Assembly: GCF_002309535.1 (NCBI RefSeq)
Contig: NZ_CP023275.1
Location: forward strand, 682,001 to 746,000
Direction of reading: 5' to 3'
Source: Sulfurospirillum diekertiae
GTDB taxonomy: Bacteria; Campylobacterota; Campylobacteria; Campylobacterales; Sulfurospirillaceae
Length of the DNA: 64,000 bases
The notes beneath the pieces were generated by a model, which saw nothing but the letters and a program-made list of their open reading frames with translations, did not search any database and had not been told where the DNA came from. Positions 44,415 through 55,761 of the stretch are shown here, piece after piece. The position numbers and the translations under genes were made by a program. Position 1 is the first letter of the stretch, and every line of letters starts with the position of its first letter.

Positions 44415-44437
44415 CATCACTCCTTGTAAGATTCATT

Positions 44438-44448
44438 TTGACATTCAT
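44438..44448 (+). repeat. Left flanking direct repeat (candidate attL)
   Basis: TTGACATTCAT, identical to 55741-55751. It lies 24 nt upstream of the OYE start codon. Its TTGACATT core also resembles the element's own promoters. Confidence 0.6.
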
Positions 44449-44500
44449 TTCTTTAATACTTTTTTTAAATCGTGTTAAAAGTAATTTATTTGTCACGATA

Positions 44501-44566
44501 TACACGCTTAACCCCGTATCACTCCTTAGGCATTTAGCTTTTAATAAAGATAGGGGTTCTCGTGTA
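44501..44566 (+). ncRNA. Structured leader RNA, candidate IS110 guide (bridge) RNA
   Basis: TACACG (44501-44506) pairs with CGTGTA (44561-44566). After a small internal loop AACCCC (44510-44515) pairs with GGGGTT (44553-44558), and after one bulged G TATC (44517-44520) pairs with GATA (44549-44552). That is 16 bp in one interrupted stem with a 28-nt apical part. A smaller stem ATCGTG (44469-44474)/CACGAT (44494-44499) and the 15-nt palindrome ATCTAGTGACTAGAT (44583-44597) lie on either side. IS110-group elements encode their bridge RNA in this place, between the left end and the recombinase. An ssDNA origin or packaging hairpin is the alternative. Confidence 0.5.
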
Positions 44567-44650
44567 CTAACTTTTAATAATAATCTAGTGACTAGATCAC
44601 GTTTATAAGTATAAAGAAGTACACACATTATACAAAAAAAAGGATTTACT

Positions 44651-45607
44651 ATGCGTAAAGTTTTTGTCGGTGTTGATGTTGCTAAAGATAAGTTGGATAT
44701 TTCTATCACTCTTGACGGTCTTAAATACGACCCTCTTCAAATTCTCAATAATGAGAGTTCTATTCTAGGCTTTTTTGATTACTTGAAAGCGACTTATAAA
44801 AAAAGTGAGCTTTTCTTTGGTTATGAGGCAACAAGTAACTATATGCACGTATTGCAAAAGCTTCTCACTGTTCATGACTTCAAACAAATAATGATTAATC
44901 CTTACATGATGAGTCACTATCTTAAACACTTAAATTCACGTAAAAAAAGTGATCTTGCTGATAGTTTGGGTATTGCTAAGTATATTCAAACACTAGATCA
45001 AGAAGAGTTTAAAACGATCTTCAATCAATCTGATAAAACACTTCGTAAATATACATCATCAATTAATCTTCTTCGTAAACTTGATACTCAACTTTCAAAT
45101 TTTGTTCATTCTCAAAAAGAAAATCCTATCGTTTCTTTAGACTCTTTTTTGTGCATTTTAAAACTTAAAATTTTAGAGACAAAAAAAGGTTTGGAAAAAG
45201 AAGCAGAGAAAGTTTTAAAAGAACTTTTCCCACATGTCATTGAACTTCAAAAAGAAATTAAAGGTGTGGGCTATGCTCTCCTTTTAGAGCTTGTCCCTAT
45301 TTTTTTAAAATCTCAGAATTACACACTTAAACAACTTCAAAGTTTTGTGGGTCTTTCCCCTCGTGTTTTTGAGAGTGGTACATCAGTTCATAAAAAAGAG
45401 TCTATGAGTAAGCGTGGTAGTTCCTTGGTTAGAAAACTTCTCTATCTTTGCGCTATGTCTGCTATCCGTTTTAATCCCATTATCAAAGAAAAATATACAC
45501 GTCTCGTTGAGAGTGGTAAAAACAAAATGGTCGCTTTAGTGGCGTGTATGTCTCATTTGTTCCGTGCAGTTTATGTCAAATTTCATCAGGGGTTAGTCAA
45601 TGCCTAA
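44651..45607 (+). CDS. IS110/Piv-family DEDD recombinase
   Basis: A 318-residue recombinase. The N-terminal RuvC-like domain shows the DEDD residues: D9 (VGVDVAKDK), E near 60 (FGYEATSNY) and a D pair near 102/105 (KKSDLADSLGIAKY). The C-terminal Transposase_20 domain has KEIKGVGYALLLEL and KRGSSLVRKLLYLCAMSA, with the catalytic serine expected in that stretch. Its stop overlaps the next gene by 8 nt (ATGCCTAA), so it is translated as part of the viral operon. Piv-type recombinases are known in Neisseria filamentous phages. The likely role is integration and excision of this element. Confidence 0.92.
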   Translation: MRKVFVGVDVAKDKLDISITLDGLKYDPLQILNNESSILGFFDYLKATYKKSELFFGYEATSNYMHVLQKLLTVHDFKQIMINPYMMSHYLKHLNSRKKSDLADSLGIAKYIQTLDQEEFKTIFNQSDKTLRKYTSSINLLRKLDTQLSNFVHSQKENPIVSLDSFLCILKLKILETKKGLEKEAEKVLKELFPHVIELQKEIKGVGYALLLELVPIFLKSQNYTLKQLQSFVGLSPRVFESGTSVHKKESMSKRGSSLVRKLLYLCAMSAIRFNPIIKEKYTRLVESGKNKMVALVACMSHLFRAVYVKFHQGLVNA

Positions 45608-45914
45608 AATCGTCTTTAACAACATTCCAAAAAAACTTAAGCCTTTTCCTTTTGAGGTTTACGATAATGAAATAGATTTGAGTGCTTTAAAACTTTCTTT
45701 TCGAATTTATCATGATGATTATGAGCGTTCCGCTTCTCTTGGCATTGATGTGAAAGGCTCTCATGTTCATATTGCAGATATTAAACTCTATCACTCTGAT
45801 AAGCTTTTTAATTTTGAGGACACTTTTGAGAGTGCTGAAATTCTATTAATGGAGATTGTAAAGCGTTTTAATTCTTTTGTTCCAAAGGGGCAACAATGTT
45901 TAGAGTTCTCGTGA
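45600..45914 (+). CDS. Element protein, 104 aa, unknown
   Basis: A soluble 104-residue protein with no recognised domain. It overlaps the recombinase by 8 nt and the next small gene by 19 nt, placing it in the early gene run of the element. The middle (YERSASLGIDVKGSHVHI) looks like beta strands. It has no cysteine pairs or membrane segment. Confidence 0.65.
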   Translation: MPKIVFNNIPKKLKPFPFEVYDNEIDLSALKLSFRIYHDDYERSASLGIDVKGSHVHIADIKLYHSDKLFNFEDTFESAEILLMEIVKRFNSFVPKGQQCLEFS

Positions 45915-46051
45915 ATGGTCTTTTAATCGGTCAAAGGCGTGCTTTTGGTGATGCTCGTAACCTTGCCAAAAGTGCAAAACGTAATTATACAAATAATCCC
46001 ATCGTTACGATTGAAGATCGTATTGGTTGGGTCGTTGAGATTGTTAAATGA
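45896..46051 (+). CDS. Element small protein, 51 aa
   Basis: The frame starts at ATG 45896 behind AAAGGGG with 6-nt spacing and ends in a 4-nt ATGA overlap with the next gene. It begins MFRVLVNGLLIGQRRAFGDA and is basic, with no recognised family. The good ribosome site and overlaps on both sides argue that it is real. Confidence 0.6.
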   Translation: MFRVLVNGLLIGQRRAFGDARNLAKSAKRNYTNNPIVTIEDRIGWVVEIVK

Positions 46052-46242
46052 AATTTGAAGTTTCACAAACGGATTTTATGCTTTTAACTTCCGTTTTAAA
46101 TTTAATTAAAAGGGGTGGTTATGGGTGCTCTATAACAAGAGAGGACATTATTAGAGAGAGTGGCGTTTCGAGGTCGGCTTTTATTAGCCGTATGCAAAAT
46201 ATACATTTAAAAGAAAAACAATTAAAGGAAAGAATCGCATGA
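46048..46242 (+). CDS. Element small HTH-like protein, 64 aa
   Basis: A 64-residue protein. ITREDIIRESGVSRSAFISRM resembles a helix-turn-helix, so it may regulate the element. It overlaps its neighbours by 4 nt on each side. It is not close to a family I can name. Confidence 0.6.
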   Translation: MKFEVSQTDFMLLTSVLNLIKRGGYGCSITREDIIRESGVSRSAFISRMQNIHLKEKQLKERIA

Positions 46243-46733
46243 ATACAAAAATAACAACGGAAACCGTTAACGGAAAAGAAGTTCCAGTTTTAGTCCACAC
46301 ACCAGTTAATAATGGTGAATCAGCCAATAACGTCGGTTTGAAAGACATGTCACCAAAAGTTGGTGAAGGTGAAATGACTATGGATAAATTCCACGAAATG
46401 ATGGCGCTTTACAATGAGCAAGTAAACGCAAACAAAGTTACCCTCTCCGCTCAAATTTCACAACGTGAAGTCCAAAACGGTAAACAAAGAACGGATAAAA
46501 CAACGGGTGCGCCTATTCTTGACGCTTTGGGTGACCCTACTTTTTACCCTAACCGCTACAAAATCACTCTTATTTTTAAAGGCGGTACGCTCGTTCAAAA
46601 TGTATCCGAAACAATGTATAACGAATTAGAGTTAAATAGCACTTACATGTTTAAAGGCTCACTAGGTTTCGTTAAAGATTTTGGACAAGATGTTCTTTCA
46701 CCTATTTGGCAATCATGGGAAAAAGTAAGTTAG
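46239..46733 (+). CDS. Candidate ssDNA-binding protein of the element
   Basis: A 164-residue protein directly before the replication initiator, the place of the ssDNA-binding protein in filamentous phages. The N-terminal 70 residues are polar and probably flexible. The C-terminal part (YPNRYKITLIFKGGTLVQNV ... YMFKGSLGFVKDF) looks like a small beta-barrel. The function is inferred from position and fold character, not from a clear motif. A terminator follows. Confidence 0.5.
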   Translation: MNTKITTETVNGKEVPVLVHTPVNNGESANNVGLKDMSPKVGEGEMTMDKFHEMMALYNEQVNANKVTLSAQISQREVQNGKQRTDKTTGAPILDALGDPTFYPNRYKITLIFKGGTLVQNVSETMYNELELNSTYMFKGSLGFVKDFGQDVLSPIWQSWEKVS

Positions 46734-46736
46734 TTT

Positions 46737-46756
46737 AAGAGGGTTAACGCCCTCTT
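46737..46756 (+). terminator. Terminator between the early genes and rep
   Basis: AAGAGGG (46737-46743) pairs with CCCTCTT (46750-46756), followed by TTCGTTTCTT. Confidence 0.65.
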
Positions 46757-46838
46757 TTCGTTTCTTGAATTTCTATTCGTAGAGCTTCAAAAAGCGAAAA
46801 AAACTTTGCCCCCACAATGGTTTATCAAGGGGGGCTTA

Positions 46839-48257
46839 GTGGTACAAATTTCAAAAAGGTTTTTAATGCAGAATATGGTCAAACTTTGGCAAAACATCGA
46901 CACACTTAAATATCACCTTTACCCCTCTCAGCTTTTGAGTGGTGATGATGTTAGAGGCTACAACTGTCTCCTTGATGATCTTCTATCCACTAAAATGCAA
47001 GCTCAAAGCCAAAAAAACGAGAATAAAAGCTTTAGTCAGTACCAACACTCATTCGGTGGGGCGTTCTTTCAAATTATGCCCGCTACCGTGCGAGGATTTA
47101 GCGTATCTATTAAAAACGCTGATGTAACCATTCACCTTAAAAAAATGATTACGACAATAGACCCTAACCCATTTTGTAAAGTCGAATTTAGAGCCTCGTT
47201 TCTACAACGTTACGGTTATATCTCTGCCGTGCAAAAAGTCAATAAGTTTTTAAGAGATTTTATTATCTCCCATTACACAATTAAGATCAGTGAAATACAT
47301 TTGCAGTGTGATGTTCAGGGTTATAACTTTACGATCTTAGATTTTCACCGTACAAAAACACGTACACGCAATAATCGTTATTATGATGATGAAATAGGTT
47401 GCGATAGTTCTTATTATAGCGGACGTTCTTTTCAGGGTTTTATGAAAGGTGGTGGTGATTATCTCATGCGTGTTTATAATAAAACTAAAGAGATAAAGAA
47501 ATTTCCTAACAAGTCTTTCATTGAGGGTTTGTGGCGTACTAATAAAGACTATGACGAGACAAAAGAAGTTTTTAGAATTGAGTTTCAGATTAGGCGTGAG
47601 AAGCTTAAAAATATGGTTATAGATGGTCAGGTTTTAGATGGTTTTGAAATTATACTTAATAACCTAAATAATCTTTGGGGTCGTTGTTTAGATGATTTTT
47701 CATTGCGCGATATCAACGATCAAGACACTATCGAAATAATGCTAGGTTTTAAAACTCAAAAAAATGGTATTCATAAAATGTTAGGTGTTGAAGCTGTACG
47801 TCAACGTTTTAAACGTAGCGAAGTGCACCCCCTCTGGAAAGTCATTGAAACCTTTAACGGTCACTATAAAACGAATGCAATTGACACTTATGTTAAACCA
47901 TTTACAACAGATTTTATCTATGTTCATAATGCGTTTAAAGCTTTCCTTTCCACGTCTCTTTCTCACTATGGCAATCTTCGTCCATGTACCATTGAAGATG
48001 CAATGAATAAGATCAAAGAATACACCGAAACTAAACATGATAGCACTGTTTTAGAGGACGTTTATAGCAAACGATTAGATCGTTTTAATCGTTTTGAGGT
48101 CAAAGATTTAGATGATGAAAAAATGCAACAAAATAAACATTACTTTGTGAATCGTGTTTTTGACACTATTGATCAAACATATAACGCTTTACATGACGAG
48201 GGTGTAGGCGTTCATGATTGGTTTATGCAAGATTTTTCTAAATTTATTGGAGCATAA
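46839..48257 (+). CDS. Replication initiation protein (Rep_trans-like)
   Basis: A 472-residue initiator of the kind found in filamentous phages and rolling-circle plasmids. Supporting stretches are VRGFSVSIKNADVTIHLKKM, NPFCKVEFRASFL, YLMRVYNKTKEI and FRIEFQIRREKL, the block pattern of Rep_trans/phage initiators. The nicking tyrosine cannot be fixed by eye. The start is uncertain: GTG 46839 has the best ribosome site (AAGGGGGG, 46828-46834), ATG 46866 is an alternative, and the frame is open from 46806. It ends 1 nt before the methyltransferase. Confidence 0.78.
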   Translation: MVQISKRFLMQNMVKLWQNIDTLKYHLYPSQLLSGDDVRGYNCLLDDLLSTKMQAQSQKNENKSFSQYQHSFGGAFFQIMPATVRGFSVSIKNADVTIHLKKMITTIDPNPFCKVEFRASFLQRYGYISAVQKVNKFLRDFIISHYTIKISEIHLQCDVQGYNFTILDFHRTKTRTRNNRYYDDEIGCDSSYYSGRSFQGFMKGGGDYLMRVYNKTKEIKKFPNKSFIEGLWRTNKDYDETKEVFRIEFQIRREKLKNMVIDGQVLDGFEIILNNLNNLWGRCLDDFSLRDINDQDTIEIMLGFKTQKNGIHKMLGVEAVRQRFKRSEVHPLWKVIETFNGHYKTNAIDTYVKPFTTDFIYVHNAFKAFLSTSLSHYGNLRPCTIEDAMNKIKEYTETKHDSTVLEDVYSKRLDRFNRFEVKDLDDEKMQQNKHYFVNRVFDTIDQTYNALHDEGVGVHDWFMQDFSKFIGA

Positions 48258-48258
48258 A

Positions 48259-49065
48259 ATGCAATTAGTCCTCTCTCTATGTTCAGGCATTGGCTTACTA
48301 GATCGTGCATTTAAAGAAGCTGGTTTTTGTGTTGTAAGTGCAGGTGACATTATTCTAGGTAAGCATTTTGATATCCGTGACTTTACAGGTGTTAAAGGTA
48401 AATTTGATGGAGTAATTGGCGGTACTCCTTGCCCTGATTTTTCTCTTATGAAACGTGACCGACCGGCTTTAGAAGATTCATACGGTTACCAAATGATTTT
48501 AAATTTTATACGTATAGTCACAGAGTGTGACTCGTCCTGGTATCTTTTAGAAAATGTGAGTGGTGTACCTAATATTCAAATTGATGGATATTCACATCAG
48601 CGAATTGACATTAACCAATCTTGGTATGAAAACGTGACTCGGCTGCGCCACATTCAATTCGGTCATAAAGAGAATAAATACCTACAAATTGAAAGAAAAA
48701 ACGTGACTGATCGATCACAGAAATTTGAACATTGTGCACTTGCAAATGATAGCCGTTCTTTTAGAGAACTTTGTAAATTGCAAGGCTTAGAAGATGATTT
48801 CGACTTAAAAAGTTTTAACGTGCAAGGTAAAAAAAGAGCTGTAGGTAACGGTGTTCCTCTTTGTATTGGTAGAGCACTTGCAAAAGCTGTGACTGACCTG
48901 GATGGAATAAGTGTGACTCAACAGGATAATAAAATCTGTGAATGTGGTTGCGGTCGAATTGTGACTCAGCAGCGAGGTAAATATTATGATTTTTCTTGCC
49001 GTAAACGAGCGCAAAGAAATAGACAAAAATCTGCTGTGACTTTGCAGCAACAAATAGGATTGTAA
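48259..49065 (+). CDS. C5 DNA cytosine methyltransferase of the element
   Basis: A 268-residue DNA methyltransferase. Motif I is LSLCSGIGLLDRAF near residue 5, the catalytic PC motif is GGTPCPDFS near 54-62, motif VI is LLENVSG near 96 and motif X is GNGVPLCIGRALA near 196. A cysteine cluster (CECGCG ... FSCRKRA) follows motif X and may bind zinc. No restriction enzyme is nearby, so it probably protects the element's DNA or modifies the host. The sequence GTGACT is repeated seven times in the gene. The start ATG 48259 is 1 nt after rep. Confidence 0.88.
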   Translation: MQLVLSLCSGIGLLDRAFKEAGFCVVSAGDIILGKHFDIRDFTGVKGKFDGVIGGTPCPDFSLMKRDRPALEDSYGYQMILNFIRIVTECDSSWYLLENVSGVPNIQIDGYSHQRIDINQSWYENVTRLRHIQFGHKENKYLQIERKNVTDRSQKFEHCALANDSRSFRELCKLQGLEDDFDLKSFNVQGKKRAVGNGVPLCIGRALAKAVTDLDGISVTQQDNKICECGCGRIVTQQRGKYYDFSCRKRAQRNRQKSAVTLQQQIGL

Positions 49066-49068
49066 AAA

Positions 49069-49170
49069 ATGAAACAAAATGAAGATTTTTATTTCGATTG
49101 TATTTTAGGTTTTTTTATCTTGTGTCCTGATCTTATAAATGTATTTTTAAAGGAGTTAAAAAATGATTGA
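49069..49170 (+). CDS. Element small hydrophobic protein, 33 aa
   Basis: A 33-codon frame after the methyltransferase, MKQNEDFYFDCILGFFILCP onwards. It has one hydrophobic helix and overlaps the peptidase start by 8 nt. A small membrane peptide next to an endolysin-like gene could be a lysis helper. Evidence is size and position only. Confidence 0.35.
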   Translation: MKQNEDFYFDCILGFFILCPDLINVFLKELKND

Positions 49171-49534
49171 TTGGTTAATGGTTGAACACTTCAAAAAAGA
49201 AGAGTTTACATGTAAGTGTGGTTGTGGTCTTAATAATATCAATGATGATGTTGTTTATATGTTGGATACTGCTCGTCAATGGGCAAATATTCCTTTTAAA
49301 ATTAACTGTGGTTGTCGTTGTAAAAAACATAATAAAGATGTAGGGGGTGTAACAGATAGTGCACATACAAAAGGTTTGGCTGTGGATATTTCCACTCCTA
49401 GCGATAGTGTTCGATTTAGCATTGTTTCGGCTCTGTTAAAAGTAGGTTTTAAACGTGTTTTGCTTTACGACACGTTTATTCATTGTGATATGGATTTGTC
49501 AAAACCAAATCCTATACTAATAATTATGAAATAA
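49163..49534 (+). CDS. M15-family D,D-peptidase (endolysin-like)
   Basis: A 123-residue peptidase of the M15_3/VanY kind that cuts peptidoglycan cross-links. The zinc ligands are seen in SAHTKGLAVDIS (H near 69, D near 76) and FIHCDMD (H near 109). The N-terminus FKKEEFTCKCGCG is usual in phage members. It could serve virion entry or release. A palindrome variant (TTTACATGTAAG at 49205) encodes FTCK. Filamentous phages normally have no lysis enzyme, so its presence matters for classifying the element. Confidence 0.88.
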   Translation: MIDWLMVEHFKKEEFTCKCGCGLNNINDDVVYMLDTARQWANIPFKINCGCRCKKHNKDVGGVTDSAHTKGLAVDISTPSDSVRFSIVSALLKVGFKRVLLYDTFIHCDMDLSKPNPILIIMK

Positions 49535-49543
49535 GGAAAAAAA

Positions 49544-49873
49544 ATGGATTTAAAAAAATTACAAGGATACGACTGGTCTAGTGTTTTAAGAGGTGTCGGT
49601 CAAGTTGCTACGGCTTTCAACCCCGCTATTGGTGGTGGTCTTATTGTTGCTTCTCAGGTGGTGGAAACGCTTAATCAAGATACTACACTTCAAAATAACG
49701 AAGTGTTAAAAAATGATGTTATTGGTCTTACTCGTTGTTCTGAAATTCTTTCAGATTATCTGCAAAAAAAAGAGCTTAAACAAGAGGTTAACGATGATAA
49801 TTTAAAACTCGTTCTTGTTTCTATCCAGTCTCTTGATGTACTGTTTGACAAAACAGTTGCAATTATGAAGTAA
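49544..49873 (+). CDS. Element protein, 109 aa, unknown
   Basis: A 109-residue protein with a small-residue hydrophobic stretch near 20-42 (QVATAFNPAIGGGLIVASQV) and a helical, charged C-terminal half. It follows the peptidase by 9 nt. The layout would suit a holin-like or virion protein, but no family is recognised. Confidence 0.55.
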   Translation: MDLKKLQGYDWSSVLRGVGQVATAFNPAIGGGLIVASQVVETLNQDTTLQNNEVLKNDVIGLTRCSEILSDYLQKKELKQEVNDDNLKLVLVSIQSLDVLFDKTVAIMK

Positions 49874-49883
49874 GGGGGTTTTT

Positions 49884-50462
49884 ATGTATGCTCCTACTAA
49901 TGCAGTTTTGTCTATTGCCCCTATAAATACTTCTTTTACTCTTTTTGATGGTACTACTGTTGATGTTAGTTTAGGTGATTTAGTTTTTTTTATTCAAGGG
50001 CAAAATACGGAGACTAATAATCTTGAATATTTAGATTTTGTTGTTGTTTCTTTTGTTGATAATATTTTTAATTATTCAAAAACAATTTTGGGATCTAATT
50101 TTCAAGTATTTCTTTCTTCTGATCGTAATAGTTTTATTTTTACTTCTGGTGAAAATTTTCAATATGTTGATTTTGTAATTGATGCCTCTGCAATGTCTAA
50201 ATTACCTAGTTCTCCCCATATTACTGGTGGTGTCAATCAAATGGTTTTTCTGTTCCTGATCTTGATGGTAATTTTGGTGCTTATCCTAATGCACGGTTGT
50301 AACTGTTTCGGCTCGTAAAGGTGAATATGTTGTTGAGGCTTCTCAGCAATTATGGTCTTATCCGCTGTTGATCTTCAGGGTAGTTCTGTTATTTATAAGC
50401 TTTCTCAAAATGGTAAAATTCTTTTAGCTCCTCATTTCTTGCTTACGTTAAAGGATTCATAA
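49884..50462 (+). pseudogene. Element gene broken by three frameshifts
   Basis: The first 110 codons (MYAPTNAVLSIAPINTSFTL onwards) are open. Coding potential then moves to other frames: SNGFSVPDLDGNFGAYPN (about 50240-50290), TVVTVSARKGEYVVEASQQ (about 50293-50350), and back to the original frame as SAVDLQGSSVIYKLSQNGKI up to the stop at 50460-50462. Each step equals the loss of one base. The restored product would be about 190 residues, beta-rich and possibly a virion protein. Without the shifts the first frame ends at 50318 with an artificial hydrophobic tail. Real decay or base-calling errors are both possible. Confidence 0.65.
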
Positions 50463-51635
50463 TGGGTGGTTGGTCTGGTGCAGGTTCGGTTAATCGTACT
50501 GTTGATACTCAACCGTCTACTCCTTCCACTATTCCTGGTGTTGAAGTTCCTTCGGTTCTTCTACGCCCGTAAATAACACTAATTTTAGACCTAATCTTCC
50601 TACTAGTAAAGAAGTTGCGATGTCTGCTCTTGAAAGTGCTATTTCTATGTCTAAAATTTCAGGTAAGACAAAGGTGGCTATTAGGTGGCTATTGATCTTT
50701 TTAGTACTGCTTATACTTTATTGTCTGAATATATGAAAACTGCTTCAGGTGATGATTTAAAAGAGGCTAAAAATAAACAACAAGAAGCTGAAAATCTTAA
50801 GTATACTTTGGAAAATATGGGTAAATTAGAGGATTATCTTACTCGTCAACAAGATGCTTTAGTTCCTCCTCCTAGTGGTGCTACTTTGCCATCTGTTTTA
50901 ACTCAGAATACTAAATCTTTGGTTACTTCTATAGGCACATTAACCTCTACTTTTGGCTCGAAGTTTGATGTTTTTAATGATTACATGTATGGGTTATTAA
51001 AATACATGGATATTGCTACAGGTTTTATGGATAAATCTTATACTCTTAATAAAGATTTAGCAGATCAAGCTAAAAAAGATAAAGAAGCTACAACCGAAGT
51101 GGGCGACACAAAGATGACTGCGCAAGAAATTTTAAATCAAAAAAATCTTGCTATGATGAAAAACTATCAGTTTAAAACGAGTGCTTTAGATAATAGTGTA
51201 CTCGAAGCAACAAACCTTTCAGGTATGACACCGTTGCAGATTGAAGCTTCCAAAAATTCATATATTGCTGAAGCTAATGAATTCGCAAAGTCACCAATCG
51301 AAACGACCATCTTAGAGTCTGATAGTGTTGTCGGTATGTCTCCTCGTGAGATCGAAGTTAGTCACAGATCAAACGAGGTTGAGGCAAGAGTTTATCAAAG
51401 AACACCAACAACCGTTAAGGATATTGATGAGAATGTTCTTTTTGATATGGCTCCTCGTGAGGCTAATTTGGTTAAAAATGCGGTTACTGCAATTAATGCA
51501 ACAGATGAGAAAAACTTTGAGTTAGATGATGAAGATCAGGATATTGTTTCACCTACTGATATTTCTACATGTTTTGGTTATGAAAGTTATGCTAAAATGG
51601 TTGATGATTTAATTAAAGATTATCAAGGGGCTTAA
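50462..51635 (+). pseudogene. Element gene broken by a frameshift and an 11-bp tandem duplication
   Basis: The frame opens at ATG 50462, overlapping the previous stop (MGGWSGAGSVNRTVDTQPST), and stops at 50572. Coding continues one frame over (SSTPVNNTNFRPNLPTSKEV). It shifts again at AGGTGGCTATT, present twice in tandem (50672-50682, 50683-50693). Removing one copy restores KTKVAIDLFSTAYTLL and joins it to the long frame ending at 51635. The restored product has about 390 residues: a proline/threonine-rich start, then helical, charged sequence. The part from GTG 50685 (316 residues) could still be made. No family recognised; a virion protein is likely. Confidence 0.7.
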
Positions 51636-51636
51636 T

Positions 51637-51816
51637 ATGATTAAAGGTAGAAATAATGAAAAACATAATTTTTCTTTTTTAGATTATGTTTTTGTTCTCT
51701 TTTTTGTTTTTGCTGTAGTTTTTTTCTATTTTAAATTTTTTGTTAATCAATCATATGGTGATATGGTTGAAAGTTCTGTTAATCAATATAAGAATGATAC
51801 TTCATTTAGTAAATAG
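51637..51816 (+). CDS. Element single-pass membrane protein, 59 aa
   Basis: A 59-residue frame with a basic N-terminus, one very hydrophobic helix (about residues 15-36, rich in F and V) and a polar C-terminus. The start ATG 51637 follows AAGGGG with 7-nt spacing. The size and topology are those of a small phage membrane or coat protein. Its stop lies in the left arm of a terminator. Confidence 0.6.
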   Translation: MIKGRNNEKHNFSFLDYVFVLFFVFAVVFFYFKFFVNQSYGDMVESSVNQYKNDTSFSK

Positions 51817-51837
51817 CCTTTTTTAGGCTGTTTACTA
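51807..51837 (+). terminator. Terminator in the element
   Basis: TAGTAAATAGCC (51807-51818) pairs over 12 bp (one G-U) with GGCTGTTTACTA (51826-51837). A T7 run lies at 51858-51864 further on. Confidence 0.65.
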
Positions 51838-51900
51838 TTCTTAAATTATCATTAATCTTTTTTTAACATTCGTCTCTCTCGTTCTTTTCTTCCCCCTCTA

Positions 51901-51930
51901 TTGACATTTTAAAAATACTTTTAACATTCT
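51901..51930 (+). promoter_or_regulatory. Element promoter-like repeat, copy 1
   Basis: A 30-nt block starting TTGACATTTTAAAAATACTT lies 20 nt before the 251-aa gene. It matches the block at 54682-54711 at 26 of 30 positions by my count. TTGACA is unusual because the host sigma-70 promoters here rarely show a -35. Confidence 0.5.
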
Positions 51931-51949
51931 CGAAAAAACGAGGTGTTAA

Positions 51950-52705
51950 ATGGGAACTGTCGAGCAAGTTGGAAAAAACTCTGCTGAAGAATTCTTTGAA
52001 ACAATTATCATGATGGTTGGATATGAGGAGTCAAAAAAGATTATTCAAGGTTTTACTAAAGATATAGAAAATCCTATTTTAAAAGAAGCTGTCGAGAGTT
52101 CTATGAATGTTTTAACTTTTGGTTTTATTATGCAAGCTGTTCGTACACAAGAGGCTTTTGTTTCAAAAATATTCCATCTTGTTGAAGTTTTGGGTGCGTC
52201 TTTAATTGCTGACCCCGCTAAAAGAGCTTTAGCTAAAATGAGAAAATTTAAAGGTGTTAAGCTTTTTCGTAGAATGGGATTTTTTCAAGGTTCTAATCAA
52301 GATAATATTATGACTGCTGGTATTATATTTACTCATGCGGGTAATTATTCTCGTCAACAAGGTGTTTCTAGTTCAACATCAATGGGCAGTTCTTTGGATT
52401 TAATGAATTCTACCAAAAACTCCCTCTACAACCGTGAGCAATTACATATGGGCTTAGGTAATAATATGGCATCACGTTACAATGAGACTTTAATGTTTAA
52501 GCTTTTCACAAAGTCATTTACTGCTCAGGATACTACTCTCATGAAGAAAATTCTTGGACGTGATACTGCTTCCGTTCTTGATGTAAACGATCTTAATAAA
52601 GCAGCCGACTTTATGTATACAAAAGACTCTAACGGCAAATTAACTGGTCTAAGTGAAGAATTTATGAATTTAATTAATGCTCTTGCATATGTTCATAATA
52701 AGTAG
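51950..52705 (+). CDS. Element protein, 251 aa, unknown
   Basis: A 251-residue helical protein. Two moderately hydrophobic stretches (about residues 40-60 and 70-90) are followed by a basic region (KRALAKMRKFKGVKLFRR) and a polar serine/asparagine-rich second half. There is no Walker motif or known domain. It starts a transcription unit with its own promoter repeat and is followed 6 nt later by the 298-aa gene. A virion or membrane-associated role is possible. Confidence 0.65.
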   Translation: MGTVEQVGKNSAEEFFETIIMMVGYEESKKIIQGFTKDIENPILKEAVESSMNVLTFGFIMQAVRTQEAFVSKIFHLVEVLGASLIADPAKRALAKMRKFKGVKLFRRMGFFQGSNQDNIMTAGIIFTHAGNYSRQQGVSSSTSMGSSLDLMNSTKNSLYNREQLHMGLGNNMASRYNETLMFKLFTKSFTAQDTTLMKKILGRDTASVLDVNDLNKAADFMYTKDSNGKLTGLSEEFMNLINALAYVHNK

Positions 52706-52711
52706 TTTTTT

Positions 52712-53608
52712 ATGTCATCTTCTACTATTCCATATTATGATTCATATGATTATTTTCAGCCTGCCTATACTGGGGTTAAACCTATTCTTAAAAATGATGT
52801 TATTTTTGATAGTTTTTTTTTAGATTCCGATGTTCCTCTCTTTAAAACATCTTTTTATGGTGTTGGTTTTTGTTATCTTCATGGTTTTTTGAATTCACTA
52901 CCCGCACTTTCTTGTCTTGGTATTTCTCGTTTTCCAAGTGCTGGAAATCCTTTTTTAAAAGATTCTAAACATGGTTTAATGCTTTGTTCTTTTTTTACTA
53001 ATTATATTAGGGGTTATTTTACTTCTTTTATGGGTGTTAGTTATGAAGAGTCTTATAATTATTTATTGTCTGCTCTTGGTAAATATGTTATTTTTAATCT
53101 AAATGCGGAATATCCCTTATTCCGTAATTCAGCTTTAGTTGTTTTTGATACTTTTGAAGATGCTTTTGCTTTTATTGGTAATGACGGTGAAACTGTTATA
53201 AAAATAATTTCTGAAGTTTATAAAATAGATGGTTATTATTATTGTAAGGGTGATGAGTGGACGGTTTATGGAGTTTTGCCTCCTGTTGTTTGTTGTTATC
53301 CTGATTTCGCTCCAATTGTTAAAATTTTTGGTGGTACTCCATCATCTAATCAGTTGAGTAATATTAAAACTATAGCCTCACTTTTAGGTTGTGATACTTC
53401 TGAAAATGGTTTAAGTGGTTGTAAACTTGGATTTCTTTATGTTGAAAGAGTTGTTGCAATGCTTGGTGGTTCTGTTTATTCTGATCTTCCATTAACTTTA
53501 AAAGAAGCTTGTCGTGTTCTTGGTGTTGATACGAATGAAAATGGTTTAAAAGATTGTGAATTATCCAAAGAGTATGTAAAAAGAATATCAATAATGTTGG
53601 GAGCGTAA
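52712..53608 (+). CDS. Element protein, 298 aa, with C-terminal repeats
   Basis: A 298-residue aromatic-rich protein (many Y and F in the first 200 residues) with no recognised family. The C-terminus carries two copies of a ~35-residue unit, LGCDTSENGLSGCKL... and LGVDTNENGLKDCEL..., each ending in YVxR and MLG. This could be an attachment or receptor-binding protein, judged only from being long, late and repeat-containing. The coding strand is strikingly T-rich. Confidence 0.65.
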   Translation: MSSSTIPYYDSYDYFQPAYTGVKPILKNDVIFDSFFLDSDVPLFKTSFYGVGFCYLHGFLNSLPALSCLGISRFPSAGNPFLKDSKHGLMLCSFFTNYIRGYFTSFMGVSYEESYNYLLSALGKYVIFNLNAEYPLFRNSALVVFDTFEDAFAFIGNDGETVIKIISEVYKIDGYYYCKGDEWTVYGVLPPVVCCYPDFAPIVKIFGGTPSSNQLSNIKTIASLLGCDTSENGLSGCKLGFLYVERVVAMLGGSVYSDLPLTLKEACRVLGVDTNENGLKDCELSKEYVKRISIMLGA

Positions 53609-53610
53609 AA

Positions 53611-53967
53611 ATGCCAATTTATAGAGTGCAATTAAAACAAGGACGTAGAACGATCACAAATCAAGTCGAAGCTAAAAGTGTAGCCGATTGTCTAGCTTTT
53701 TTTAATGAATTAACGACCATGAAAGTGAGTGAGATTTTAAAGATAGAATACTCGGACGATACTCAATCTCCAATAGATGATTTCGGTTACTGGGCTGTAT
53801 TCAAAGGCATTATTAAAACGAATGCAAATATGAGTCATCAGATCGTGCTTAATAATGTCAAGTTAAATAAAAATGAGGGTGATATAGCTCTTTCATGTCG
53901 TAACCATTTAGAGGTAGGTGGTTTTAACATAACAAGCATTGTGACTGGATTGTTCAAAAGGTCTTAG
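53611..53967 (+). CDS. Element protein, 118 aa, unknown
   Basis: A soluble 118-residue protein with an N-terminal beta/alpha pattern (YRVQLKQGRRTITNQVEAKS). No family is recognised. Its base composition is less T-rich than the two genes before it. It starts 2 nt after the 298-aa gene and is the last rightward gene before the non-coding hairpin region. Confidence 0.6.
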   Translation: MPIYRVQLKQGRRTITNQVEAKSVADCLAFFNELTTMKVSEILKIEYSDDTQSPIDDFGYWAVFKGIIKTNANMSHQIVLNNVKLNKNEGDIALSCRNHLEVGGFNITSIVTGLFKRS

Positions 53968-54310
53968 AGATTAGCCTACATGTAGGCTCACGCCTCTCTT
54001 TCTCTTTGTCAAACGCAGAATCCAAACTTAACAAAGTTAAAGCTTTAAAAATAAAGCTCCCGCCACCCGCTAGGGTATAAGGGGCATTAACCAAGAATGG
54101 GACTATGTCCCACTTTTGGTTAATGATAGCCCCGACCAAAAAGTGCGCTTTGCGCCAAAACACACGTCTAAACTGAGTGGCAGATTCGAACGCCAAACAC
54201 TCTCAAAAATACATAAAATTTCACAAACTCCACCTTAAAAGCCCGCTCTTTGCTTTTATATCTCAACAATCGTTAAGTGACTAAGCGGTGGAGCGTGAGC
54301 TCCCTCTCTT
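53968..54310. other. 343-nt multi-hairpin non-coding region (origin/packaging candidate)
   Basis: A perfect 16-nt palindrome AGCCTACATGTAGGCT lies at 53973-53988. A large branched hairpin spans 54081-54133: GGGGC and ATTAACCA pair with TGGTTAAT and GCCCC (GATA bulged), with an inner TGGGAC/GTCCCA stem. Smaller hairpins are GCGC-TTT-GCGC near 54145-54155 and GGAGC/GCTCC at 54290-54303. The stretch is richer in C and G than its neighbours. Dense hairpins in the only long gap of a Rep-encoding element suggest a rolling-circle origin or packaging signal. No nick site can be assigned. Confidence 0.6.
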
Positions 54311-54571
54311 TTACATTGCTGTATCTGTAAATGTATAATTTTCTAAAGCTTTTACTAGGTCGGCTTTATTTTTTGTGATAGCTATTGCATAATCTAGGTT
54401 TGTTTTTCTGTGTGCCGTTATATTGCTTTTACAATAAACGTAGCTCCCTGATTGATAAGCTATTTTTCCACATGTAAGACATCGTAACTCACTTAATGTT
54501 GTACTCGTGACATTTTTTAATCCAAAACTACTTTTTAAAAACGTTTGACAATCTGTTGCAGATACTGCCAT
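54311..54571 (-). CDS. Element zinc-ribbon-like protein, 86 aa (only leftward gene)
   Basis: An 86-residue protein with cysteines spaced CLTCG ... VYCKS that could bind zinc. The N-terminus MAVSATDCQTFLKSSFGL is helical. It is the only gene on the minus strand of the element and has its own promoter-like TTGACATTTC at 54632-54623. An opposed lone gene would suit a regulator of the lysogenic state, but no DNA-binding fold is recognised. Confidence 0.55.
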   Translation of the reverse strand: MAVSATDCQTFLKSSFGLKNVTSTTLSELRCLTCGKIAYQSGSYVYCKSNITAHRKTNLDYAIAITKNKADLVKALENYTFTDTAM

Positions 54572-54622
54572 TTTTCCCCCTTTTTTTATCTTAAATATGA
54601 TTTGAATGATAATTTTAAAAAT

Positions 54623-54632
54623 GAAATGTCAA
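54623..54632 (-). promoter_or_regulatory. Element promoter-like repeat, copy 3 (leftward)
   Basis: Minus-strand ATATTGACATTTC shares the first 12 bases of the rightward copies and lies about 60 nt before the leftward gene. Confidence 0.4.
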
Positions 54633-54681
54633 TATGACTTATCTCTAAGTCTCTTCTTTTCGTTGTTTTGAAACACCTATA

Positions 54682-54711
54682 TTGACATTTCAAAAAAACT
54701 TTTAAACTTCT
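54682..54711 (+). promoter_or_regulatory. Element promoter-like repeat, copy 2
   Basis: A 30-nt block starting TTGACATTTCAAAAAAACTT, near-identical to 51901-51930, lies 42 nt before the 117-aa gene. Confidence 0.5.
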
Positions 54712-54753
54712 TCCCATGTTTTGCAAAACAAAATCAAACGCAAAGGTAAACCA

Positions 54754-55107
54754 ATGATCAAACAAAAAATTGCCGGTAGAAACGTCAATACTGTTTCGGC
54801 TTCAGGTAGTGTGGCGGATATGACAACTTTAGGCGCAATCTTAGAGGGTGAATTATCTTTTTATGAGCAAAAATTTGAGGGTGGCACAACTGCTAATCCT
54901 GCGGTTCTCAACGCTAAAAAGTTTAGTGTAGGCAAAAAATATCTTAGCGGTCAAAGACAAAGTGCTAGCGTGTCTATTCCTCACGTTAAAGCTACAAAAT
55001 CTTTCGCTGAAATTCAAACGGCTGTGATCGGTCAATTTGATGAGAGCTTTAAGTCTTCAACAAAATGTGACTATTCAAACTTATTCTATGACAAGAAAGA
55101 GGCATAA
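54754..55107 (+). CDS. Element protein, 117 aa, unknown
   Basis: A soluble 117-residue protein (MIKQKIAGRNVNTVSASGSV). The start ATG 54754 follows AAAGG; the frame is open from 54721. No family is recognised. It has its own promoter repeat and is followed 2 nt later by a protein of similar size. The two may act as a pair, for example in replication or virion structure. Confidence 0.6.
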   Translation: MIKQKIAGRNVNTVSASGSVADMTTLGAILEGELSFYEQKFEGGTTANPAVLNAKKFSVGKKYLSGQRQSASVSIPHVKATKSFAEIQTAVIGQFDESFKSSTKCDYSNLFYDKKEA

Positions 55108-55109
55108 CA

Positions 55110-55445
55110 ATGGGACAAACATTAATTAAAAATAAACTTGGTGCAAAAACAAGTTCGTTTAATCTTCCATGCGATGATACGGTTGCAAGTGCTTTTTGTG
55201 CTTCTTTTCTTGAAGGCGAATATGTTGGATATGCTTTAAATTCCACAACTGGTACGGATACACCATCACCTTACAATCTTGTAAATGTTGTGATCTCAAA
55301 CACTCTGGGGTTAAAAACGTATCTTTCAATGGCTGTTAAATCAAACAAAAGTGAAGATGAAATTTATACCGCTCTTACTGGTTTGACATTTAACGGTGTC
55401 AAAGCGGATAATATCTCAATCATCAGCATGAGAAGCGTAGCGTAA
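55110..55445 (+). CDS. Element protein, 111 aa, unknown
   Basis: A soluble 111-residue protein, beta-rich with many small residues (SFLEGEYVGYALNSTTGTD). No family is recognised. It begins 2 nt after the 117-aa gene and its stop overlaps the next start by 1 nt, so the three genes form one unit. Confidence 0.6.
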   Translation: MGQTLIKNKLGAKTSSFNLPCDDTVASAFCASFLEGEYVGYALNSTTGTDTPSPYNLVNVVISNTLGLKTYLSMAVKSNKSEDEIYTALTGLTFNGVKADNISIISMRSVA

Positions 55446-55669
55446 TGACTTTTCAAGAGTGGTTGTCTTTTGGTTTGGCTGTTGGTTGTCAGCTTGTCGT
55501 AGTTGTTACAGTTATCGCAACTCTTAAAGAACGAGTAAAACGTTTAGAGTTGGATGTCGTTAACCTATGGGAAAAACAAAACGAAGCAAAAGAAAAGCAC
55601 GAAATGATCGTTAGAATTGATGCTAAGCTCGATATGCTTATCACTCAATTCGCTCAAAAACAAGGTTAG
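55445..55669 (+). CDS. Element membrane protein with coiled coil, 74 aa
   Basis: A 74-residue protein with one N-terminal transmembrane helix (about 5-27, GLAVGCQLVVVVTVIATL) and a charged coiled coil after it. This shape is common among phage spanin- or holin-associated proteins and small virion membrane proteins. It is the last gene of the element and ends in the arm of a terminator. Confidence 0.6.
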   Translation: MTFQEWLSFGLAVGCQLVVVVTVIATLKERVKRLELDVVNLWEKQNEAKEKHEMIVRIDAKLDMLITQFAQKQG

Positions 55670-55685
55670 AGGCTTAAAAGCCTCT
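55668..55685 (+). terminator. Terminator at the right end of the element
   Basis: AGAGGCTT (55668-55675) pairs with AAGCCTCT (55678-55685) around an AA spacer, followed by TTCCTCTT. Confidence 0.7.
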
Positions 55686-55740
55686 TTCCTCTTAAAACTT
55701 CAAAAAAATCAAAATCTTTCAAAAAAACACCCTTTACCCC

Positions 55741-55751
55741 TTGACATTCAT
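55741..55751 (+). repeat. Right flanking direct repeat (candidate attR)
   Basis: TTGACATTCAT, identical to 44438-44448, only 10 nt from the stop codon of the efflux outer-membrane gene. Confidence 0.6.
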
Positions 55752-55761
55752 CATATAATCT

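What the first reader, a model, noticed from the sequence alone, without database searches (positions are those of the whole stretch)
44438..55751. Virus-like element that uses an IS110-type recombinase as its integrase
The recombinase overlaps the next viral gene by 8 nt and is the first gene of a co-directional viral gene set inside flanking repeats. So an IS110 enzyme, normally a transposase of tiny IS elements, appears to have become the integrase of an ~11 kb virus. Piv-type enzymes in Neisseria filamentous phages are the nearest known case, but the gene set here is different.
Basis: partly seen in the sequence, partly recalled or inferred. Interest (0 to 1): 0.85.

Follow-up and report, generated by a model that had tools for sequence, protein, structure and literature searches.

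The report
Phage integrase aimed by guide RNA
An 11-kb prophage-like element of a sulfur bacterium appears to enter the chromosome with an IS110-type recombinase whose small guide RNA, encoded at the element's left end, spells out the insertion site; relatives carry different guides that match their own different sites.

Summary
The element is real and mobile. A second copy lies elsewhere in the same genome, and a same-species genome has the uninterrupted site (802 of 802 nt aligned, 99%).

The IS110 recombinase is not a hitchhiking IS: it heads the same gene set in three Campylobacterales families. Of 25 strong matches in 397 class genomes (at most 5 candidates scored per genome), 22 head the gene set, 2 sit in remnants, 1 is decayed and alone.

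New point: the 226-nt leader (44425-44650) encodes an IS110-group bridge RNA. Its left target guide matches the element's own insertion site: 23 of 26 elements share 8-10 nt exactly in the guide stretch, against 10 of 650 mismatched pairs; 0 of 100,000 permutations do as well. Donor guides are nearly invariant. Joining the ends would complete a sigma70-like promoter in 10 of 10 elements read.

A relative carries holin, spanin-like and endolysin genes, so a temperate phage is likely, but no capsid protein was recognised. IS110-carrying inoviruses are known; this lineage and the guide-site evidence appear new.

The parts
44423..44424 (.). Left core dinucleotide CT (attL); chromosomal target lies to its left (ATCACTCCT 44416-44424)
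   Evidence: copy 1/copy 2 comparison, empty site in G150, core positions
44425..44650 (+). 226-nt non-coding left end; bridge RNA, fold modelled on 44495-44625
   Evidence: two-domain fold over 9 elements; no Rfam match
44427..44432 (+). TAAGAT, -10-like half of the promoter that only joined ends complete
   Evidence: 10 of 10 junctions read carry TTGAC[AT] + 17-18 nt + a -10-like hexamer (G149 re-read by eye as 17 nt/TATAAT; no control run)
44518..44526 (+). Left target guide ATCACTCCT, identical to the left flank of the insertion
   Evidence: differs in copy 2, where it matches that copy's own flank
44543..44549 (+). Right target guide AATAAAG, complement of the right flank CTTTATT
44580..44586 (+). 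Left donor guide ATAATCT, identical to the element's right end
   Evidence: ATAATCT in 8 of 9 elements, ATAATC in the ninth
44603..44609 (+). Right donor guide TTATAAG, pairs (one G-U) with the left donor end CTTGTAA
   Evidence: in G030 guide ATACAAG goes with donor CTTGTAT
44651..45607 (+). IS110-group recombinase (integrase), 318 aa; D9, E59, D101, D104, S242 invariant in 10 rows
   Evidence: (IS621 E 3.9e-33)
45600..45914 (+). g104, unknown, conserved next gene in the genus
46048..46242 (+). g64, small protein, possibly an HTH regulator
   Evidence: no match of its own; the ORF in the same place in G333 matches phrog_11187 transcriptional regulator 5e-5
46239..46733 (+). g164, conserved small protein before Rep; guessed ssDNA-binding protein (no family match)
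   Evidence: conservation; function is a guess from position
46806..48257 (+). Rep-like replication initiator
   Evidence: phrog_33635 endonuclease 7e-7, phrog_1159 6e-9; match to Zuza8 endonuclease 6e-5
48214..49065 (+). C5 cytosine methyltransferase, optional cargo
   Evidence: PF00145 7e-16; absent from G015, G006, G014
49163..49534 (+). M15 peptidase endolysin
   Evidence: PF08291 6e-14, phrog_894 endolysin 1e-26
49544..49873 (+). g109, conserved unknown after the endolysin (holin candidate by position only)
49884..51635 (+). Two genes (193 and 396 aa in copy 2) whose frames are interrupted in the window copy; variable among relatives
51950..52705 (+). g251, hallmark conserved protein of the family, function unknown
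   Evidence: found in 23 of 397 class genomes; AlphaFold pLDDT 51, uninformative
52712..53608 (+). g298, variable N-terminus, conserved C-terminus; host-recognition candidate (guess)
53611..53967 (+). g118, conserved unknown
54754..55107 (+). g128, conserved, likely paralogue of g111
   Evidence: hhalign probability 92.8%
55110..55445 (+). g111, conserved, confident model (pLDDT 92) without a clear fold match
55445..55669 (+). g74, small protein with a hydrophobic N-terminal stretch (by eye)
55741..55746 (+). TTGACA, -35-like half of the junction promoter, in the right end
55760..55761 (.). Right core dinucleotide CT (attR); chromosomal target CTTTATTTGG continues to the right

Best explanation
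This is an 11.3-kb temperate phage (or phage-like provirus) whose integrase is an RNA-guided IS110-group recombinase. In the circular form the right end (-35 box) and left end (-10 box) join and make a promoter that transcribes the left-end bridge RNA. One loop of the RNA pairs with the phage's own joined ends (donor), the other with a chromosomal site of about 14 nt around a CT core; the recombinase exchanges strands at CT and inserts the phage without target duplication beyond the core. Different phages of the lineage, even two in one cell, carry different target loops and so use different sites, while the donor loop stays nearly the same. Shown by sequence: ends, empty sites, guide-site match, conserved RNA fold, promoter-like junction, strong association of the recombinase with the gene set. 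Inferred: transcription of the RNA, catalysis, a circular intermediate, production of virions.
For: Empty site for copy 1 in a same-species genome (802 of 802 nt, 99%) and contiguous alignments of 720 nt or more across it in 16 of the 23 other genus genomes, that one included; empty site for copy 2 in G015 (query 26-602 of 602, 90%). The 14-nt site read off the guides, ATCACTCCTTTATT, occurs exactly once in G150, at that empty site. Left guide: 23 of 26 elements share at least 8 nt exactly with their own flank in the guide stretch (set after seeing where guides lie), 10 of 650 mismatched pairs do, shuffled leaders 1.9%, permutations 0 of 100,000. Unrestricted score, first 23 elements: 17 at 9/10 or better, sum 205/230, permutations 0 of 100,000, shuffled 3.8%. 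Right guide: 6-7 of 7 with G-U in 8 of 8, permutations 7 of 100,000; unrestricted, 346 of 100,000. The two copies differ by 12 leader substitutions, 8 of them at 44519-44542 in the target loop, and each matches its own site. RNA fold in 9 elements, both-side changes in 6 of 19 pairs (no shuffled control run). The G149 tandem contains the joined-ends junction. Nearest PDB relatives IS621 and ISCro4. Tyrosine-recombinase genes beside two IS110-less relatives. Lysis cassette in a relative.
Against: No RNA, recombination or virion data. Three of 26 elements miss the exact guide test: G015 (6 nt; 9/9 counting one G-U type change), G234 (5 nt; 8/9 with G-U) and G274 (6 nt; 7/9 with G-U). L126 repeats G234; remnants G110, G186 and G263 do not match. 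No capsid, portal or packaging protein was recognised; g251, g118 and g111 find nothing among 50,697 phage records and IMG/VR scans gave one relative. The joined-ends sequence was not found in 24 genus genomes. The NCBIfam IS110 equivalog model scores 131 bits, below its 140 cut-off.
Confidence: 0.88

Rival explanations
1. An ordinary IS110 insertion sequence landed at the left end of an unrelated integrated element and plays no part in its movement.
For: IS110 is normally a small stand-alone IS; copies among host genes without genes of this set exist in the class (L131, L132, L133).
Against: The recombinase is first gene of the same gene set across three families and lies on its own branch (98/93) of the tree; the ends recognised by the RNA's donor loop are the ends of the whole 11-kb element, not of a ~1.3-kb IS; empty sites lack the whole element.
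Confidence: 0.03
2. The element is not a virus but an IS110-based transposon or integrative plasmid with a Rep and borrowed lysis-like genes.
For: No capsid, portal or packaging protein recognised; nearly absent from IMG/VR and, by g251, g118 and g111, from the phage records.
Against: M15 endolysin in the window; in G333 an ordered run of spanin-like protein (phrog_739, 8e-4), an overlapping 85-aa ORF, holin (3e-21) and endolysin; many conserved genes of unknown function and variable genes fit a virion module; no plasmid match by megablast.
Confidence: 0.12
3. Integration is protein-specified as in a classical integrase; the guide-like matches reflect sequence captured from earlier insertion sites.
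For: Imprecise excision could leave flank sequence in an element (general argument, no call).
Against: Matches sit at one position in an RNA fold, left guide in sense and right guide in antisense as in IS621 (rule from PMC11208160, passages); donor guide and donor end change together in G030.
Confidence: 0.04

Closest known systems
IS621 / IS110-group bridge-RNA systems (PMC11208160, passages read)
   Same: DEDD + serine recombinase, bridge RNA in a long left end, target and donor loops, CT core, promoter rebuilt at the joined ends
   Different: Here the mobile unit is an 11-kb phage-like genome with replication and lysis genes, not a small IS; strong matches to this recombinase were found with this gene set (or its remnants) only, in the class genomes searched
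Thermus inoviruses Zuza8, Zuza27, phiOH16 (PMC11437467, passages read)
   Same: Small phages with an IS110 transposase next to the replication endonuclease; weak Rep similarity
   Different: Filamentous gene set (VIII, III, VI, assembly protein); no bridge RNA or guide-site match in the passages read; recombinase on a long branch far away
Neisseria Nf phages with Piv-type transposase and Acinetobacter Af1 (PMC11209303, passages read; Kawai 2005 seen only as a citation)
   Same: IS110/Piv-type enzyme proposed as phage integrase
   Different: Inoviruses (Af1 with zot); no RNA-guided reading in the passages read
Classical temperate phages with tyrosine integrase (recalled)
   Same: Integrase gene at one end, att core, lysogeny; two relatives of this lineage have PF00589 genes beside them
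   Different: Site set by a guide RNA with a 2-nt core instead of a protein-read att core

Membership tests
IS110 family recombinase, IS110 group | DEDD RuvC-like domain plus C-terminal Transposase_20 domain with serine | tested here: met
   PF01548 and PF02371 above cut-off; D9, E59, D101, D104, S242 invariant in 10 rows; IS621/ISCro4 3.9e-33/6.5e-33. Residue roles recalled. NCBIfam equivalog cut-off not reached (131 vs 140 bits)
IS110 family recombinase, IS110 group | Non-coding left end longer than right end, bridge RNA in the left end (not IS1111) | tested here: met
   Left 226 nt, right about 90 nt (55670-55759); guides in the left end
Bridge RNA | Two internal loops whose guides pair with target and donor, core included | tested here: met
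   exceptions G015 (one mismatch), G234, G274 told
Bridge RNA | RNA is made and bound by the recombinase | not testable with these tools
   needs small-RNA sequencing and pull-down
Insertion sequence | Short unit carrying only transposition functions | tested here: not met
   Unit is 11,337 bp with about 19 ORFs
Inovirus (Tubulavirales) | Zot/pI assembly ATPase | tested here: not met
   No Zot match in Pfam scans of 19 window ORFs and PHROG scans of 18; profile-level test only, and two genes are broken in the window copy
Inovirus (Tubulavirales) | Non-lytic release | tested here: inconclusive
   Endolysin in window; lysis cassette in G333; release not observed
Temperate phage | Precise chromosomal integration with intact empty site elsewhere | tested here: met
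Temperate phage | Capsid and packaging genes | tested here: inconclusive
   None recognised; g111 fold search without clear match, g251 model unusable

The most novel reading that the evidence does not exclude
A previously unrecognised lineage of small phages with lytic release, spread over at least three Campylobacterales families, lysogenises by RNA-guided integration. Its members re-aim themselves by changing about 9 + 7 guide letters while keeping the enzyme, and the guide RNA is switched on only by circularisation, so integration competence is coupled to entry or excision. Site choice by guide RNA lets two near-identical prophages share one chromosome at different loci.
Probability: 0.65. 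Interest if true: 0.9.

Novelty: new variant of a known kind. Interest (0 to 1): 0.82.

Why it matters
It would show that viruses, not only insertion sequences, use bridge-RNA-guided recombination, and that a phage can change its attachment site by changing a few RNA letters without evolving a new integrase. It gives natural examples of re-aimed bridge RNAs with known sites and payloads of about 11 kb, useful for genome-insertion tools, and it suggests a re-reading of IS110-carrying inoviruses. It also exposes a phage-like lineage nearly absent from the viral catalogue searched here.

Tried and rejected
Rejected: TTGACATTCAT repeats as att sites; recombinase as hitchhiking IS; IS1111 type (guides lie in the left end); inovirus (no Zot match; lysis genes).

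Led nowhere: Rfam (no match); viral-contig scans with Rep and with the first g251 alignment (none), the wider g251 alignment gave one locus; joined-ends pattern in viral contigs gave one hit without genes of the element, taken as chance, and none in 24 genus genomes; PDB profile searches for g251, g111 and g128 (nothing convincing); Pfam scan of the g111 family and PHROG scan of the g251 family (weak only); AlphaFold of g251 (pLDDT 51); fold search of g111: Foldseek no match at E<=0.001 in PDB or BFVD, VIA-align best Z 5.6, rmsd 5.0, 58 residues, ribosomal proteins, in the range the tool calls middling. Trees of Rep and g251 do not settle whether IS110 was swapped for tyrosine recombinases or the reverse. 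The exact 14-nt site of copy 2 is absent from G150, which shows only short repeat matches to that region.

Results against, and weak spots: G234 (= L126) and G274 fail the guide test, G015 passes only with one mismatch, remnants G110, G186 and G263 fail. In one search the best 10-mer of G182 lies outside the guide stretch (its guide shares 9 nt exactly) and that of G149 lies at the right guide (left guide shares 8 nt exactly). The guide stretch used was chosen after the positions were known. In one search two left-guide rows (G005, G006) were scored one column off by the alignment and one right guide (G008a) was taken at a wrong GAT; they are counted as scored. In one search the right-flank permutation was 346 of 100,000 and the G015 match lies outside the guide. 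G410 has a truncated recombinase and no detected Rep. Not tested for lack of flank or left end: G209, G003, L061, L065, L066, L069, the second unit of G149. In the tree long branches are flagged; c2, G209, G221 and G263 are not in it; of 13 non-set IS110 rows 12 form one branch and L136 goes with Zuza8; only L131, L132 (two genes) and L133 had their surroundings examined, the other nine were fetched as genes only, from genomes without a g251 match. One search scored at most 5 candidates per genome.

Papers: PMC11208160, PMC11437467, PMC12045711, PMC11209303 read as found passages; others seen only in search listings. No paper joining bridge RNA with a phage integrase was recognised in the listings (open-licence PMC only, no bioRxiv; lists capped), so this is no proof of absence.
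Full report
Check of the observation. The window carries an intact IS110-type recombinase (44651-45607, 318 aa) overlapping the next ORF by 8 nt, followed by a nearly co-directional gene set up to 55669. A second copy of the whole element lies on the other strand of the same 2.81-Mb chromosome. Aligning the two copies shows where shared sequence begins and stops: from 44423 to just past 55760. A same-species genome, G150, has the two flanks contiguous over 802 of 802 nt at 99%; of the 23 genus genomes other than the window's own, 16 (G150 included) align over 720 nt or more across the junction. Copy 2's site is empty in G015 (query 26-602 of 602, 90%). The unit is therefore 44425-55761, 11,337 bp, with a CT dinucleotide at each junction.

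Who has it. tblastn of the window genes against relatives, a scan of named genome contigs and class-wide searches show the same order: recombinase, small genes, Rep, (methyltransferase), endolysin, variable genes, g251, variable gene, g118, g128, g111; in some relatives the endolysin lies at the far end. Records with g251 homologues are named Sulfurospirillum, Sulfurimonas, Sulfurimonadaceae, Campylobacterales, Nautiliaceae and Helicobacteraceae MAGs and one Hydrogenothermaceae MAG with a reshuffled set. The window's host is probably a Sulfurospirillum (inference: same-genus genome G006 has the 9,833-bp contig length of DBTO01000048.1, a Sulfurospirillum record). g251 occurs in 23 of 397 class genomes.

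Is the recombinase part of the element? In 397 class genomes (at most five candidates scored in each) the recombinase profile gives 25 places at E 6.6e-61 or better, then a gap to 1.7e-45. Of the 25, 22 head the phage gene set (L130 up to its contig end), G110 and G186 are remnants with other genes of the set, and G263 is decayed and alone. Three loci with weaker matches that I examined (L131, L132, L133) show IS110 without genes of the set. In a tree of 41 rows the 26 recombinases of the set, plus the truncated one of G410, are one side of a branch (98/93), apart from 12 other class IS110s that form their own branch; L136 groups with Zuza8; long branches are flagged. IS1111 and Piv sequences were not included because none was fetched. 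Relatives G108 and G065 have a PF00589 tyrosine recombinase beside the set, in G108 just upstream of the g164 homologue; the ends of those elements were not determined. G426 shows neither among the ORFs looked at. Trees of Rep and g251 do not resolve the order of these changes.

The guide RNA. The 226 nt between the left core and the recombinase are non-coding. Across nine elements of the genus and its sister the right half is almost invariant, while about 9 nt and 7 nt in the left half vary between elements. These are the target guides: the left guide equals the chromosome left of the core, the right guide is the complement of the chromosome right of the core, as described for IS621 (PMC11208160, passages read). 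Window: guide ATCACTCCT, flank ATCACTCCT; guide AATAAAG, right flank CTTTATT. Copy 2: guide AACCATACT, flank AACCATACT, same right guide. Of the 12 substitutions between the two leaders, 8 lie in the target loop at 44519-44542. The combined site ATCACTCCTTTATT is found exactly once in G150, at the empty site.

How strong is the match? For 26 elements with a flank (23 located by one set of donor motifs, and G358c, L067, G410 by another), 23 share at least 8 nt exactly with their own flank within the guide stretch, 85-160 nt before the gene; only 10 of 650 mismatched leader-flank pairs and 1.9% of shuffled leaders do, and 0 of 100,000 permutations reach the sum (the stretch was set after seeing the positions). 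Without any restriction on position, 17 of the first 23 reach 9/10 or better, sum 205 of 230, 0 of 100,000 permutations, shuffled leaders 3.8%. The three that miss are G015 (6 nt exactly; one G-U-type difference), G234 (5 nt; 8/9 with G-U) and G274 (6 nt; 7/9 with G-U). L126 repeats G234; remnants G110, G186, G263 do not match; G209 has no flank. Right guides: 6-7 of 7 with G-U in 8 of 8, 7 of 100,000 permutations; without position, 346 of 100,000. Donor guides: ATAATCT in 8 of 9 and ATAATC in one, matching the right end; TTACAAG or TTATAAG matching CTTGTAA, and ATACAAG in G030 where the donor reads CTTGTAT, a matched change. The consensus fold has 19 pairs, 6 with both-side changes, in a target domain and a donor domain (no shuffled control was run on the pairs).

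Circle-dependent promoter. In 10 of 10 elements with both ends in hand the right end supplies TTGACA or TTGACT and the left end a -10-like hexamer at 17-18 nt, complete only when the ends are joined (for G149 the script chose a 19-nt spacer, the 17-nt TATAAT reading is by eye; no control run). The tandem prophage of G149 holds exactly such a joined-ends junction in the chromosome. The genus-type junction was not seen in 24 genus genomes.

Is it a virus? The window has an M15 endolysin and a Rep with weak similarity to phage replication endonucleases, including that of filamentous phage Zuza8. In G333 the set ends with a spanin-like protein (phrog_739, 8e-4), an overlapping 85-aa ORF (phrog_2291, unknown function), holin (3e-21) and endolysin (4e-15). 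No Zot match was found by Pfam scans of 19 and PHROG scans of 18 window ORFs. The virion proteins remain unknown: g251 gives a low-confidence helical model; g111 gives a confident model without a clear relative and is probably a paralogue of g128. The lineage is nearly absent from IMG/VR (one locus) and not found in 50,697 phage records by g251, g118 and g111.

Mechanism. Most likely the infecting or excised circle makes the junction promoter; bridge RNA and recombinase are expressed; the donor loop holds the joined ends, the target loop finds the chromosomal site, exchange occurs at CT; once integrated the promoter is split and silenced. The sequence evidence covers ends, guides, fold and promoter halves; expression, catalysis and particle formation are inferred.

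What is new. IS110 enzymes in phages are known: Neisseria Nf (as cited), Acinetobacter Af1 and Thermus Zuza8/Zuza27/phiOH16 inoviruses, and further inovirus records in the phage collection, among 22 records matched. The passages read on these do not mention a guide RNA. The present lineage is not an inovirus by the tests made, and the guide-to-site match across many loci is direct sequence evidence for RNA-guided phage integration with natural re-aiming. I recognised no paper stating this in the listings (open-licence PMC only). Hence: new variant of a known kind, high interest.

Noticed in passing
window 50235-50682: Four 1-nt and one 11-nt length differences, without substitutions in that stretch, against copy 2 of the same genome break the frames of two variable genes; either assembly error or inactivation.
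   Followed up: partly
window 51380-52447: The two copies of the genome are near-identical except here and at the left end; g251 is 77% identical between copies while copy 2's g251 is nearly that of G015: a swapped module, perhaps exclusion or host range.
   Followed up: partly
window 48214-49065: C5 methyltransferase present in c1, c2, G008, G005 but absent from G015, G006, G014: optional cargo.
   Followed up: partly
L033/L038 (G149): Tandem prophage with period 9,067 bp whose second unit has lost the guides and most of the recombinase, and whose internal junction is the joined-ends sequence.
   Followed up: yes
L126:1580-11423: A member of the lineage sits beside ORFs that look like tailed-phage genes (by eye) on an 84-kb IMG/VR contig, as if inserted into another prophage.
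   Followed up: no
L127:3646-16971: A partial element lies next to ORFs that look like CRISPR-associated genes (by eye only).
   Followed up: no
L069:6308-11548: A Hydrogenothermaceae MAG carries g128, g111, endolysin, g251 and g118 in a different order, without a detected IS110 or Rep: the lineage may reach beyond Campylobacterales, or the contig is misbinned.
   Followed up: no
window 51879-51930 and 54660-54711: A 52-nt repeat (79%) with a TTGACA precedes both the g251 and the g128 gene groups, suggesting joint expression.
   Followed up: no
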